A stretch of 16,588 nt of DNA from positions 1-16,588 of the forward strand of contig SXIE01000281.1 of assembly GCA_005772945.1 (NCBI GenBank). The letters are read 5' to 3'. This DNA is from Pseudomonadota bacterium. GTDB lineage: Bacteria; Myxococcota; UBA9042; PHBI01. A model generated the notes under the pieces. It worked only from the letters and a program-made list of their open reading frames with translations, was not told where the DNA came from and ran no database searches. Positions 11,968 through 16,588 of this stretch are shown here, piece by piece (the first letter of the stretch is position 1; each line of letters starts with the position of its first letter). A program made the position numbers and the translations under genes.

Positions 11968-13953
11968 ATGGGCCACCTCACGGGACGAACACAGACGCTG
12001 CGGCTCGGGCCCGGTCGCGGTGCGTGCGTCGGGGTGACCGCGCGCGTGATGCTCTGCGCGAGCCTGGGCGCCGCCGCGTCGGCCTGCGGCTGTCCCGACG
12101 CGCGCGAGCTGCCGCCCTCACCCAAGCTCGTCCGCCCGAGCCCCGAGCGCGTCGCCGAGCTCGCCGCTCAGCACGGCGTGATCCCTCCGCGCGATAGTTT
12201 GCACACCAATGATCGGGTCGAGACCCGCATCACCAAAGGCCCCGCGGCCTTCACGAACGCCGCCCAGTTCGACGGATTCCAGCGCGAATGTGACGCGCTC
12301 GAGCCGCGCGAGGTCCCGCAGCCCGGACTCGCACCCGGCAAGGACGAGAGCGCCCTCGGCCAGATCTACCGCGGCCAGCGCCCTCCCCCGCCGCTTCCGC
12401 CGCTCGCCGGCGACAACATCCTGCGGGTGGCCGAGACCAACCCCGAGTTCATCGACCCGAACAAGGTCGCCGAGCAGGCGGGCTCCGCGATCGTCGCGAA
12501 CCTCTTCGACACGCTCTACGCCCTCTCCCCCGGCAACGCCCCGCCCGTTCCCAGCGCCGCCGAGCGCACCGACGTCAGCCCCGACGGCAAGACCCTCACG
12601 TTTCATCTGCGCCCCGGCATGCGCTGGAGCGACGGCCACGCGGTGACCGCCGAGGACTTCCGCTACTCGTGGCTGCGCGCGTTGGATCCCGCGACCGGCA
12701 GCCGCAACGCCCAGCTCCTCTGGACCATCGTCGGTGCCAAGGCCTACAACACCGGGACCGCCAAGACCGCGGACGGCGTACAGATCCACGCGCCCGACGC
12801 GCTCACCCTCCAGGTGGTCCTCGTCGCCCCTACCCCGTTCTTTTTCGACGTCACGACCTACCCCTCATTCGCCCCCGTCCCGCGCGCGCTCGTCGAGCGC
12901 TGGGGCAGCGAATGGACCCGCCCCGAGCACCTCGTCAGCAACGGCGCCTTCACCCTCACCCACTGGGCCGAGCGCGACCGCTTCGAGCTGAAGAAGAACC
13001 CGCGCTTCTGGGACGCCGCGAACGTGGCCCTCGACGGGATGGTCATCTACCACTCGGACGACGAGCGGAAGAACGAGCTCCTCTACGCGAGCGGCCAAAT
13101 CCACATCGCGCGCCCCATCTCTCCGGACTCCATGCGCACGTGGATCGCCGAAGGTCGCTCCGACCTCCGCATCGATGCCAACATGTGCATCTATTACTAC
13201 GTCGTCCGCACCGACCGACCGCCGTTCGATGACGTGGACGTTCGCCGCGCGCTCGATCTCGCGCTCGACAAGGAACGCGTCACGGGCCACATTCTAGGCG
13301 GGTTTCAGAAGGTCGCCACCACGCTTGTGCCCGAGATCGCCACGCCGATCTCAGGCTACCTGCCGCCCCCTGGACCCGGCTACGACCGCGCCGAAGCCGA
13401 GCGCCTTCTGACCGGCGCCGGCTACCCCAACGGCCAGGGACTCGGCAAGGTCGACCTCCTCTACAACAGCTACGAGGTCCACGCGCGCATCGCGCAATTC
13501 CTCGCCGACAACTGGAAAACCGCGCTCGGCCTCGAGTTCACCAGCTCCAAGATGGAATGGAAATCACTCCTGAAACGCCAAAACGCAGGCGATTTCCACA
13601 TCGCGCGCGCCGGTTGGTGCGCCGACTATCCGGACGCGATGGCGTTCCTCGAGGTCTTCCAATCAGACTCCGAGAACAACTACCCGGCCTACAGGAACCC
13701 CGCCTACGACGCGCTCCTCGAGCGCGCGCGCCTCGAGCCCGATCGCCGCCAGCGCAATGTCTTCCTGTGCGCCGCCGAGAAGGGCCTCATGCGCGATATG
13801 CCGGTCATCCCCATCTACCAATACACGCGCGCCGCCCTCATCCGCCCCGAGGTCCGTGGCTATCTGCCGCAGTACCAGGACCATCACCTCGCGCGCTGGA
13901 TCTCGCTCGCCCCGACGACCGCGTCCCCCCCAACAGCGCCCGGAGCCCCGTAG
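11968..13953 (+). CDS. oppA: Oligopeptide/dipeptide ABC transporter substrate-binding lipoprotein, extended N-terminus
   Basis: This family-5 solute-binding protein captures peptides for the OppBC permease encoded next. With ATG 11968 (AAGGG at 11958-11962) it has 661 residues and a long 40-residue signal ending at AASAC (Cys40). A GTG at 12034 would give a neater signal starting MTARVMLCASLG; both starts are possible, and the tentative promoter favours 12034. Residues about 41-148 are an extra proline-rich region ending in GQRPPPPLPPLAG. The binding domain runs from about 150: NILRVAETNPEFIDPNK, DVSPDGKTLTFHLRPGMRW, NGAFTLTHW, FDDVDVRRALDLALDKERV, ARAGWCADYPDAMAFLEVF and YDALLERAR. Classical OppA proteins are about 540 residues. 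Two bases separate its stop from oppB. Substrate specificity cannot be read from sequence. Confidence 0.92.
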   Translation: MGHLTGRTQTLRLGPGRGACVGVTARVMLCASLGAAASACGCPDARELPPSPKLVRPSPERVAELAAQHGVIPPRDSLHTNDRVETRITKGPAAFTNAAQFDGFQRECDALEPREVPQPGLAPGKDESALGQIYRGQRPPPPLPPLAGDNILRVAETNPEFIDPNKVAEQAGSAIVANLFDTLYALSPGNAPPVPSAAERTDVSPDGKTLTFHLRPGMRWSDGHAVTAEDFRYSWLRALDPATGSRNAQLLWTIVGAKAYNTGTAKTADGVQIHAPDALTLQVVLVAPTPFFFDVTTYPSFAPVPRALVERWGSEWTRPEHLVSNGAFTLTHWAERDRFELKKNPRFWDAANVALDGMVIYHSDDERKNELLYASGQIHIARPISPDSMRTWIAEGRSDLRIDANMCIYYYVVRTDRPPFDDVDVRRALDLALDKERVTGHILGGFQKVATTLVPEIATPISGYLPPPGPGYDRAEAERLLTGAGYPNGQGLGKVDLLYNSYEVHARIAQFLADNWKTALGLEFTSSKMEWKSLLKRQNAGDFHIARAGWCADYPDAMAFLEVFQSDSENNYPAYRNPAYDALLERARLEPDRRQRNVFLCAAEKGLMRDMPVIPIYQYTRAALIRPEVRGYLPQYQDHHLARWISLAPTTASPPTAPGAP

Positions 13954-13955
13954 CC

Positions 13956-15116
13956 ATGGGCCGCTACCTCCTCCGTCGCCTCCTCGGCACTGTGCTCGTC
14001 CTCTGGGTCATCGTCACCGGCTCGTTCTTCCTCATGCGCTTCGCGCCCGGCGGCCCCTTCGATCGCGATCGCCGCCTGCCCCCCAACGTCGAAGCCAACA
14101 AGTGGCTCATCTTCGGCATGGGCGAAGAGGTCACGGCGCCCGTCGCCGGCACCATCACGTCGGTCGGCACCTTCGTCACAAAACACACGGAATACGCGGC
14201 CGGGACGGTGCTCGCCACCATCCAACCGACCGCCGGCGGCGCGCCCGTCGAGGTGCGACTCGAGGACGACAGCCCCATCGTCGCGGTCGGCGTCGAGGCC
14301 GGTGCCACCGTCGCGGTCGGTGCCCGCATCGTGGTCGTGCCCAAGCCGCTACTGGCCCAATATTGGGATGCAATCGGTCACTACCTGACCCTCGATTTCG
14401 GCAAGACCATCACGTCCGAGGGCACGCGTGACGTTTCCGAGGAGCTCCTGCGCGCCTTGCCCATCAGCTTCCAACTCGGCGTCATGGCTCTGTTTTTTGC
14501 GCTCGCCATCGGCATCACCCTCGGCCTCCTGGCCGGTCTCAAGCAGAACACCTGGGTCGATTATTCGGTCATGACCGGCGCGATGGTCGGCGCCTCGATT
14601 CCGACGATGGTCAGCGGCCCACTCATCGTCGCCGTCTTCGCGCTCGGGCTCGGCTGGTTTCCGGTCGCCGGCTGGGAATCGAGCCAGGCCGAGTGGTCGA
14701 CGTGGCAATATCGGGTCTTGCCGGTCATCACGCTCGGGCTCGCCTACGTCCCGGTCATCGCGCGCCTCACGCGCGGCGGCATGCTCGAGGTCGTGCGCTC
14801 GGATTGGATCCGCGCCGCCCGCGCCAAAGGCCTCTCGGAGCGTACGATCGTCCTGCGCCACGCGCTCCGCCCGGCCCTCCTCCCGACGATCTCGTGGCTC
14901 GGTCCCGGCACCGCCGGCATCGTCACCGGGTCGATCGTCATCGAGCGCGTCTTCGGGATCCCCGGCCTCTCCGAGCACTTCGTGACGCCCGCCCTCAACC
15001 GCGACTACCCGATGGTGATCGGCGTCGTCGTCGTCTACTCGGTCATCCTCGTCGTCCTCAATCTGCTCGTCGATCTGGCCTACACCTTCCTCGATCCGCG
15101 CGTGAGCCTCGAATGA
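13956..15116 (+). CDS. oppB: Oligopeptide ABC transporter permease OppB with inserted barrel-sandwich-like domain
   Basis: The 386-residue permease is one half of the membrane channel of the peptide importer. GGAG at 13942-13945 precedes the ATG. It starts like other OppB proteins (MGRYLLRRLLGTVLVLWVIV, helix 1 at about 9-29, then FAPGGPFDRDRRLPPNV). The family then expects YGLDQPLLxQY; instead about 80 residues (51-129) are inserted before LLAQYWDAIGHYLTLDFGKT. The core then continues normally: helices at about 171-195, 204-232, 254-270, 313-335 and 351-375, with the EAA coupling loop SDWIRAARAKGLSERT at 282-297 that contacts the ATPase, and the C-terminal YTFLDPRVSLE. Normal OppB is about 305-340 residues, so the excess equals the insert. 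Stop and oppC start overlap as ATGA. Confidence 0.95.
   Translation: MGRYLLRRLLGTVLVLWVIVTGSFFLMRFAPGGPFDRDRRLPPNVEANKWLIFGMGEEVTAPVAGTITSVGTFVTKHTEYAAGTVLATIQPTAGGAPVEVRLEDDSPIVAVGVEAGATVAVGARIVVVPKPLLAQYWDAIGHYLTLDFGKTITSEGTRDVSEELLRALPISFQLGVMALFFALAIGITLGLLAGLKQNTWVDYSVMTGAMVGASIPTMVSGPLIVAVFALGLGWFPVAGWESSQAEWSTWQYRVLPVITLGLAYVPVIARLTRGGMLEVVRSDWIRAARAKGLSERTIVLRHALRPALLPTISWLGPGTAGIVTGSIVIERVFGIPGLSEHFVTPALNRDYPMVIGVVVVYSVILVVLNLLVDLAYTFLDPRVSLE
14106..14342 (+). other. Domain insert in OppB: biotinyl/lipoyl-like barrel-sandwich hybrid
   Basis: Residues 51-129 of OppB contain two half-motifs as in biotinyl/lipoyl folds: VTAPVAGTITSVGTFV then YAAGTVLATIQ, followed by VEVRLEDDSPIVAVGVEAG then ATVAVGARIVVV. 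The AP-x-AGTI and EAGATVAVGARI turns are the usual signatures. The turn between halves (PTAGGAPVEV) lacks a lysine, so it is not a biotin or lipoate carrier; it would be a structural or binding module as in membrane-fusion proteins. It lies in the loop after helix 1, predicted periplasmic. The fold call is by eye. Confidence 0.65.
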
Positions 15117-16588
15117 CCGCGCCTGCTCTCGCGAAGAGCGCCGAGCGCTCGCCCGCGGCGAAACCTCGGAGCCTCTGGGCCGACGCCTGGCGCCGCCTGC
15201 GCCGGAATCGCCTGGCCCTCGGCGGCCTGTGCCTCATCGTCCTCGTGGCCTTCGTCGGCTTCAGCGCCCCGTGGTGGGAAGCCAACGTCACCCACTTCGG
15301 TCGCAACGAAGCCAACAGCCTCCTGGCCAGCCAACCGCCCGGCGTGCGCGGCGTCTCCTCCACCCATCCGACCTACGACGGCGACCCGCGCGCCTTCGCG
15401 CTCGTCGATTTCGACGGCGACGGTTTCCTCACCTGCCGCCTCATCCCCGCACAAAACCTGGTCCCGCCGGGCCTCCGCTTCCTCGAGTCGTTCGCCCCGT
15501 CGCTGCACGCGGAGGTCCAGCGCGACCTCACCGCGCTCCTCCGTCAGGCCGGCGACGGTGATATTGGGCGCGCCCTCGGCGTCATCCTCGGCGTCATCGA
15601 TTGCCCCGAGCTGCGCCTCGCCGACGAGGTCGCCACCCAGCACTTCGAGAAGCTCCTGGGCGGCGACAAACCCAGCGAGAAAGCCCAAGCCGGTTACCTC
15701 CTGTGGGACGAATTCCCGAAGAACGACAACGACTTACCAGCGCGCTTCCGTGGCCTCGGCCTCGCCGGCCTCGAGGCCTTCACGGCGCTCGACATCGACG
15801 GCGACCACGTCCTCTCGCGCTGGGAGATCATCGAGCGCACGCGGACCCTGCGCTACGCCTCGCAGCCCGAGGCGGGCCCGCGCAACTTCGATCGTTTCCT
15901 CCACGACTTCGATGCCGACGGCGATCTGCGCATCTCGCTCGCCGAGTTCCCAGGCGCCCCCGAGCTCCACACCTACGTCCTCGGCACCGACAACAACGGC
16001 CGCGACATCCTGACGCGCCTCTTCTTCGGCCTGCGCCTCTCGATCATGATCGGGCTCCTCTCGACGCTCGTGTCGCTCCTCATCGGCGTCCTCTACGGCG
16101 CTGTCGCAGGCTACGCAGGCGGTCGCGTCGACGGCCTCATGATGCGGCTTGTCGATGTGCTCTACGGCCTGCCCTACATCTTCCTGGTCATCCTCTTCAT
16201 CGTCATCATCGACGACCGCAATAACCCCATCCTCCTCTTCATGGCGCTCGGACTCGTCCAGTGGCTGACGATGGCCCGAGTGGTCCGCGGTCAGGTCCTC
16301 TCGCTCAAGAACCGCGAGTTCATCGAGGCTGCGCGCGCCATCGGCGTCTCGCGCACCGGCATCATCTTCCGCCACCTCATCCGCAACGCGGTCGGGCCCA
16401 TCATCGTCTACGCCACCCTGCTCGTGCCCGCCGTCATCCTCGAGGAGGCGTTCCTCTCGTTCCTCGGGCTCAGCATCGACCTCTCGCTCGGCAACATGAT
16501 CGCCGAGGGCACGCGCACCATGGAGAATATGCCATGGCAGATTCTCTATCCGTCGTTGGCACTCGCCCTCATCCTCTTCGGCTTCAAC
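15113..16588 (+). CDS. oppC: Oligopeptide ABC transporter permease OppC with EF-hand insert, 3'-truncated by window
   Basis: The frame is open from the ATG at 15113 (overlapping the oppB stop) to the window end, 492 residues without a stop. Residues 1-33 fit OppC (LWADAWRRLRRNRLALGG), with helix 1 at about 34-52. The family then normally reaches the GTDNxGRD motif after some 40-50 residues; here it comes at 291-297 (LGTDNNGRDILTRLFFGLRLS), leaving an external loop of about 235 residues. After that the core is typical: helices from about 305 on, the EAA loop NREFIEAARAIGVSRT at about 400-416, and EEAFLSFLGLS. Three EF-hand-like loops lie in the insert. Complete OppC is usually about 300 residues; this one would be about 500. 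oppD and oppF are expected downstream. Confidence 0.94.
   Translation, partial: MTAPALAKSAERSPAAKPRSLWADAWRRLRRNRLALGGLCLIVLVAFVGFSAPWWEANVTHFGRNEANSLLASQPPGVRGVSSTHPTYDGDPRAFALVDFDGDGFLTCRLIPAQNLVPPGLRFLESFAPSLHAEVQRDLTALLRQAGDGDIGRALGVILGVIDCPELRLADEVATQHFEKLLGGDKPSEKAQAGYLLWDEFPKNDNDLPARFRGLGLAGLEAFTALDIDGDHVLSRWEIIERTRTLRYASQPEAGPRNFDRFLHDFDADGDLRISLAEFPGAPELHTYVLGTDNNGRDILTRLFFGLRLSIMIGLLSTLVSLLIGVLYGAVAGYAGGRVDGLMMRLVDVLYGLPYIFLVILFIVIIDDRNNPILLFMALGLVQWLTMARVVRGQVLSLKNREFIEAARAIGVSRTGIIFRHLIRNAVGPIIVYATLLVPAVILEEAFLSFLGLSIDLSLGNMIAEGTRTMENMPWQILYPSLALALILFGFN
15407..15442 (+). other. EF-hand-like loop 1 in OppC (position 12 lost)
   Basis: Residues 99-110 read DFDGDGFLTCRL. Ligand positions 1, 3 and 5 are Asp, 6 is Gly and 8 is Leu, but position 12 is Leu instead of Glu, so calcium binding would be weaker or absent. 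Confidence 0.6.
15791..15826 (+). other. EF-hand loop 2 in OppC (complete ligand set)
   Basis: Residues 227-238 read DIDGDHVLSRWE, matching D-x-D-x-D at 1, 3, 5, a hydrophobic residue at 8, Ser at 9 and Glu at 12. Position 6 is His rather than Gly. A helix (LAGLEAFTAL) precedes it and another (IIERTRTL) follows, as in a true EF-hand. Confidence 0.75.
15911..15946 (+). other. EF-hand loop 3 in OppC (complete ligand set)
   Basis: Residues 267-278 read DADGDLRISLAE followed by Phe, the classical DxDGDxxIxxxEF pattern (position 6 is Leu). It starts 40 residues after loop 2, close to the spacing of a paired EF-hand unit. Confidence 0.78.

What the first reader, a model, noticed from the sequence alone, without database searches (positions are those of the whole stretch)
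11968..16588. Co-elaborated peptide importer: extra domains at the same loop of both permeases plus an extended binding protein
OppB and OppC are homologous, and both inserts sit at the equivalent place, the external loop after helix 1, while OppA has about 110 extra residues between its lipid anchor and the binding domain. Independent accidents at all three subunits are unlikely, so they may form one periplasmic assembly, perhaps a calcium-dependent docking or gating module for large peptides. This is the best candidate for an undescribed system in the window.
Basis: inference. Interest (0 to 1): 0.8.

Follow-up and report, generated by a model that had tools for sequence, protein, structure and literature searches.

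The report
Peptide importer with stacked periplasmic add-ons
A bacterial peptide importer, probably from a Myxococcota bacterium, carries a calcium-binding-type domain, a biotin-carrier-like barrel and an extended binding protein on its outer face, and relatives suggest these parts were added one after another rather than as a single kit.

Summary
OppC has a ~227-residue EF-hand domain and OppB a ~73-residue barrel-sandwich-hybrid domain (biotinyl/lipoyl fold without a conserved cofactor lysine), both between TM1 and TM2; OppA has ~100 extra residues after its lipobox. All three are conserved modules: ligand residues of EF loops 3 and 4 are near-invariant, and two Cys pairs co-occur almost perfectly. 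EF-OppC was found in at least 60 of 377 genomes of the phylum (inferred Myxococcota). Of 57 such operons with a readable OppB loop, 22 have the barrel, 20 a different insert, 14 the ordinary 26 residues and one 45. All 23 barrel-OppB loci found sit beside an EF-OppC (nine of these fed the search profile). Among fetched loci the OppA extension is confined to the window's subclade. Most likely the modules enlarge the OppA docking face: the barrel is spliced directly after the OppB scoop motif, which in E. coli DppB enters the binding-protein cleft (PMC12136057). That function, and calcium binding itself, are inferred. New variant of the Opp importer.

The parts
11968..13953 (+). OppA, lipoprotein peptide-binding protein (SBP_bac_5), 661 aa
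   Evidence: Pfam PF00496 1.8e-82; PRK15104 OppA profile 2.8e-89, below its equivalog cut-off
12085..12417 (+). OppA N-terminal extension after the lipobox Cys40 (residues 40-150), with conserved Cys108
   Evidence: Cys108 and Cys601 both present in 39, both absent in 120, Cys601 alone in 1 (N-truncated) of 160 rows
13768..13770 (+). OppA Cys601, predicted disulfide partner of Cys108
13956..15116 (+). OppB, permease, 386 aa
14061..14123 (+). OppB scoop-motif equivalent (residues 36-56), retained
   Evidence: alignment to E. coli OppB up to its LPPEVMAN; loop tables; scoop motif described in PMC12136057
14124..14342 (+). OppB inserted barrel-sandwich-hybrid domain (residues 57-129)
   Evidence: five of eight chosen relatives pass the Pfam PF00364 cut-off
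15113..16588 (+). OppC, permease, 492 aa read, runs off the window
15293..15973 (+). OppC inserted EF-hand domain (residues 61-287)
   Evidence: (AF2 pLDDT 92.4)
15407..15442 (+). EF loop 1 (residues 99-110): ligand positions 1, 3, 5 kept, position 12 not acidic; holds Cys108
15602..15604 (+). OppC Cys164, predicted disulfide partner of OppC Cys108
   Evidence: 79 both, 18 neither, 0 single of 97; 19 both, 39 neither, 1 single of 59
15791..15826 (+). EF loop 3 (residues 227-238), canonical
   Evidence: D1 93/97, D5 88/97, E12 89/97 plus D 5/97
15911..15946 (+). EF loop 4 (residues 267-278), canonical
   Evidence: D1 97/97, D5 95/97, E12 97/97

Best explanation
This is an oligopeptide (Opp) type I ABC importer whose periplasmic face has been enlarged stepwise, apparently within Myxococcota. 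SHOWN by comparison: (1) operons with an EF-hand domain in the OppC TM1-TM2 loop form one clade; [quoted passage not shown] (3) within the barrel line the window's subclade has a ~100-residue OppA extension whose cysteine co-occurs with a new cysteine near the OppA C-terminus. INFERRED: the OppC domain is a Ca2+-stabilised, disulfide-locked platform in the periplasm; the OppB barrel is a rigid domain hung on the scoop; with the stapled OppA extension they widen and stiffen the OppA docking face, so that OppA is held in register, its cleft is entered by the scoop, and released peptide is sealed into the cavity. [quoted passage not shown]
For: Domain identity. Insertion point after the retained scoop helix. 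Scoop motif enters the binding-protein cleft and is proposed to seal the cavity in E. coli DppABCDF: PMC12136057 (abstract and passages seen). EF ligand residues near-invariant although the insert averages 47% majority-residue conservation against 75% for the core. Cys pairs. Nested gains: careful tree (EF clade 100/99, barrel clade with L200 99/97, other-insert clade 96/82; four changes for five states, the minimum); quick tree with more rows (EF one change, barrel three).
Against: No contact between the modules or with OppA is shown. EF-OppC occurs without the barrel in more than half of the readable operons, so an EF-dependent function does not need it. EF loop 2 is degenerate in the window protein (A193 where 90 of 97 have D) and loop 1 lacks an acidic position 12, so only two loops look fully competent. 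Ca2+ binding was not measured. OppC loops of two unrelated bacteria carry other long inserts, so the loop tolerates additions. The comparison operons were picked without EF, so the single gain holds only for this sampling.
Confidence: 0.5

Rival explanations
1. The OppC EF-hand domain is a regulatory calcium sensor: periplasmic Ca2+ changes switch the importer between productive and idle states, and the OppB and OppA elaborations are secondary.
For: Two canonical EF loops with near-invariant ligands; the EF domain is shared by the whole clade while OppB loops vary.
Against: EF hands plus a predicted disulfide in an outer compartment are as easily structural. No regulatory partner was seen (not searched for).
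Confidence: 0.2
2. The domains bind something other than OppA: peptidoglycan, another binding protein, or an envelope partner that brings peptides to the importer.
For: The barrel fold is also that of membrane fusion proteins (weak PF13437 HlyD_3 hits in three of eight relatives); in several barrel operons my filter found no oppD/oppF directly after oppC, so partners may be unusual.
Against: The barrel is joined directly to the scoop, which points it at the OppA site. No search for conserved partner genes was made.
Confidence: 0.15
3. Mostly neutral accretion at a permissive loop: insertions are tolerated and conserved only for folding and stability.
For: Unrelated OppC inserts in L025 and L071 and a different OppB insert in a sister clade.
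Against: Near-invariant ligand residues; in the barrel line only one clear shortening (L200, 45-residue loop) and one uncertain case (L165, canonical loop on a long branch).
Confidence: 0.1
4. The OppB barrel carries biotin or lipoate, like its relatives, and acts as a carrier arm.
For: Fold match to BCCP and Pfam Biotin_lipoyl.
Against: No hairpin column has lysine in more than 7 of 104 sequences, MK/DKA-like tips occur in 2 of 104, and 20 of 104 have any lysine in the inner hairpin; the domain lies outside the membrane.
Confidence: 0.02

Closest known systems
E. coli OppBCDF (8z21) and OppA
   Different: E. coli OppB and OppC have short loops here and no inserted domains; the OppA profile begins where the window's extension ends
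Scoop motif of E. coli DppB (PMC12136057, abstract and passages)
   Same: The corresponding segment between TM1 and the short helix is retained in the window's OppB
   Different: A whole barrel domain is spliced right after it
MalF P2 periplasmic loop of the maltose importer (function recalled; search listing and two reference titles seen)
   Same: A periplasmic loop domain of a permease that interacts with the binding protein
   Different: Different loop and fold, one subunit only (recalled)
Biotin carboxyl carrier and lipoyl domains (2ejf, 8hz4, 7b9k)
   Same: Same fold by profile and structure
   Different: No conserved cofactor lysine; embedded in a permease loop
Calmodulin-type EF-hand domains
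   Same: Canonical 12-residue loops and profile matches
   Different: Inserted in a membrane permease on the periplasmic side, with an added Cys pair

Membership tests
Opp/Dpp (peptide) type I ABC importer | OppB and OppC permease cores (BPD_transp_1, OppC_N) with solved homologues | tested here: met
Opp/Dpp (peptide) type I ABC importer | Family 5 binding protein OppA in the same operon | tested here: met
Opp/Dpp (peptide) type I ABC importer | Two ATPase subunits OppD and OppF | tested here: inconclusive
   Window ends inside oppC; at least one D/F-type frame after oppC in 33 of 60 fetched loci by a filter that misses over-long frames; the rest include contig ends
Opp/Dpp (peptide) type I ABC importer | Peptide transport activity | not testable with these tools
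   needs experiment
EF-hand Ca2+-binding domain | 12-residue loops with acidic ligands at 1, 3, 5, 12 | tested here: met
   Loops 3 and 4; loop 1 lacks acidic 12, loop 2 degenerate in the window
EF-hand Ca2+-binding domain | Helix-loop-helix fold | tested here: inconclusive
   AF2 shows helices and short strands at the loops; a separate fold match of the insert was not obtained (rows are permeases)
EF-hand Ca2+-binding domain | Binds Ca2+ | not testable with these tools
   needs ITC or a structure
Biotinyl/lipoyl (barrel-sandwich hybrid) fold | Fold match to solved members | tested here: met
Biotin/lipoate carrier protein | Modifiable lysine at the hairpin tip | tested here: not met
   lysine at most 7 of 104 in any hairpin column
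MalF-P2-like docking domain | Direct contact with the binding protein | not testable with these tools
   no complex model or structure

The most novel reading that the evidence does not exclude
The EF-hand domain, the scoop-mounted barrel and the stapled OppA extension form one Ca2+-dependent periplasmic docking vestibule that captures OppA (and perhaps long peptides) before translocation: a peptide importer whose binding-protein docking is built from three successively recruited modules and is conditional on calcium.
Probability: 0.3. Interest if true: 0.78.

Novelty: new variant of a known kind. Interest (0 to 1): 0.6.

Why it matters
It would be an ABC importer with foreign folded domains at the equivalent loop of both permease subunits, one a calcium-binding-type domain, the other a re-used cofactor-carrier fold without its lysine. 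The nested series in sampled genomes (EF only, EF plus barrel, EF plus barrel plus OppA extension) offers natural intermediates for testing how binding-protein docking evolves and what the scoop motif does. It also shows that plain OppB/OppC annotation can hide such domains.

Tried and rejected
Rejected: a single co-acquired three-part assembly; a biotin- or lipoate-carrying OppB; artefact. Spread outside the phylum: 0 EF-OppC among 40 genomes behind other loci; five weak hits there are frames of 175-258 aa, read as free-standing EF proteins from size alone. Most of these 40 are titled as other phyla; one (L038) is titled Deltaproteobacteria and is of unclear phylum.

The short barrel profile matches 338 of 377 genomes, most hits probably ordinary biotin/lipoyl proteins (judged from frame sizes only), so a longer profile, A7, was used. 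Structure searches with OppC listed only permeases in the rows shown. Paper searches: searches returned no paper; the listings (11, 6 and 1 papers, titles and abstract starts seen) showed no such permease; passages of PMC10574481 described none. This speaks only for an open-access library. For MalF P2 I saw a listing and reference titles in PMC3328499.

Of the 60 fetched loci 59 were chosen by EF hits and one (L195) by a barrel hit, so EF in 60 of 60 is nearly by construction. 23 of the 82 genomes with an EF match were not followed up. Nine of the 18 A7 rows come from loci first found through EF hits, so the 23 of 23 is partly circular. OppB counts set apart L200 and leave out L160 and L201 (no OppB found) and L161 (OppB cut by the contig end). 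L159 is cut too but its barrel is partly read. A3 holds 97 and A4 104 of 121 rows each. OppA rows: three hits over 720 aa left out; P0319 and P0362 have long N-termini without the Cys pair. The careful tree left out L018 (duplicate of L183), L201, L198, L165, L062, L071, L161, L159. The quick tree (79 rows) kept all but L018 and L201 and needs 3 changes for the barrel and 6 in all; there L161 was labelled canonical although its loop is unread. Not done: complex prediction, coevolution, partner-gene search.

Full report
1. What is there. Three adjacent plus-strand genes encode a peptide importer: OppA 11968-13953, OppB 13956-15116, OppC from 15113 to beyond the window end. Pfam and NCBIfam profiles place them in the Opp family, without reaching equivalog cut-offs. 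Extra sequence in all three is confirmed.

2. The OppC insert. Residues ~61-287 lie between TM1 and the LGTD motif that opens the conserved core. AF2 gives the protein pLDDT 92.4 with the insert mostly well ordered. Pfam finds EF-hand families at 2e-6 to 1e-5 around their cut-offs in the window's protein. The 97-row profile hits EF-hand proteins in the PDB, best 6e-10. 100 of the 120 listed relatives carry precomputed EF-hand domains by my count, and 120 of 120 match my EF profile. Loop 4 has D 97/97, D 95/97 and E 97/97 at positions 1, 5, 12; loop 3 has 93, 88 and 89 (plus 5 D); loop 1 keeps positions 1, 3, 5 but not 12; loop 2 keeps E12 97/97 and D5 90/97, but the window's own loop 2 has lost D5. 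The insert averages 0.47 majority conservation, the core 0.75. Cys108 and Cys164 are both present in 79, both absent in 18 and never single among the 97; in the fetched loci the count is 19, 39 and 1 single. That fits a periplasmic disulfide.

4. The OppA extension. 122 residues separate the lipobox Cys from the domain-start marker. Across 160 aligned OppA rows Cys108 (in the extension) and Cys601 are both present in 39 and both absent in 120; the one exception, P0280, is N-truncated. This points to a disulfide that staples the extension to the binding domain.

5. Do they go together? In 377 genomes of the phylum of G003 (an uncultured genome; Myxococcota by inference) the EF-insert profile matched 82 genomes at 1e-5. 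I fetched 60 loci, one per genome, 59 chosen by EF hits and one by a barrel hit; all 60 have an EF-type OppC and 46 an OppA frame. OppB loops: 22 barrel, 20 a different 60-93 residue insert with a PVFP-type segment, 14 the canonical 26 residues, one 45 residues (L200), three unreadable. A search with a barrel-OppB profile found 22 full-length loci plus one cut by a contig end, in 22 genomes; all 23 lie beside an EF-type OppC (22 by fetched loci; G198:C61 by the coordinates). Nine of the 18 profile rows came from EF-found loci, so this is partly circular. Among 40 genomes behind other loci no EF-OppC was found. OppB loops are exactly 26 residues in 21 of 21 comparison operons without EF.

6. 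Order of gain. In the careful tree of OppB plus OppC cores (73 rows, inserts removed) the EF operons form one clade (100/99), barrel operons with L200 one clade inside it (99/97), the other OppB insert another (96/82), and five states need four changes, the minimum. L157, with EF-OppC and a canonical OppB, is sister to the barrel clade. The window groups with L148, L143 and L154 (100/99). L143 and L148 have the Cys-paired OppA extension and L154 has it by eye in an open frame; no other fetched locus with a closed OppA frame does (40 of 42 lack it). The quick tree with long branches kept needs 3 changes for the barrel and 6 in all; L165, canonical but inside the barrel line on a long branch, is the main oddity. 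The simplest order is OppC domain, then OppB barrel, then OppA extension.

7. Mechanism. The insertion points put the barrel on the scoop and the EF domain at the matching loop of the other permease. The most likely reading is an enlarged, Ca2+-stabilised OppA docking face. Shown: domain identity, place, conservation, nesting. Inferred: Ca2+ binding, disulfides, contact with OppA, effect on transport. A calcium switch, a partner other than OppA, and neutral accretion remain open.

8. Novelty. Eight paper searches showed no such domains in an Opp permease: five returned nothing and three gave listings that I judged by titles and abstract starts, with passages of one paper (open-access library only). 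The transporter is a known kind; the domain architecture is a new variant. Inserts at the OppC loop are not unique to this clade: unrelated inserts of about 90-110 residues occur in L025 and L071.

Noticed in passing
L162, L166, L167, L169, L172, L173, L175, L177, L178, L180-L186, L189, L190, L192, L194 (OppB loops): A second, unrelated OppB insert of 60-93 residues that begins with an LD(R/K)P(V/I/T)FP-like segment, many with three or more cysteines, a few residues after the barrel's insertion point; one clade in the careful tree.
   Followed up: partly
L025 and L071 (OppC): OppC TM1-TM2 loops of a Treponema MAG and of Rhodopirellula are 135 and 117 residues long with inserts unlike the EF domain.
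   Followed up: partly
P0208 (OppB relative): The insert region is 181 residues long and looks by eye like two barrels in tandem; Pfam found no Biotin_lipoyl hit in it.
   Followed up: no
L144-L147, L152, L153, L155, L158, L164, also L165, L188, L191, L193, L195, L196, L198, L200: No oppD or oppF frame was found directly after oppC although 2.8-4.5 kb are held (the filter can miss over-long frames), so the ATPases may lie elsewhere.
   Followed up: no
window:9240-10676: Calcineurin-like metallophosphoesterase domain (8.6e-5) behind a cysteine-rich N-terminal part.
   Followed up: no
window:3787-5106: PpiC/SurA-type foldase with a proline-, alanine- and glycine-rich C-terminal tail.
   Followed up: no
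window:11289-11963 (-): Frame upstream of oppA on the other strand with hydrophobic segments and no Pfam match above cut-off.
   Followed up: no
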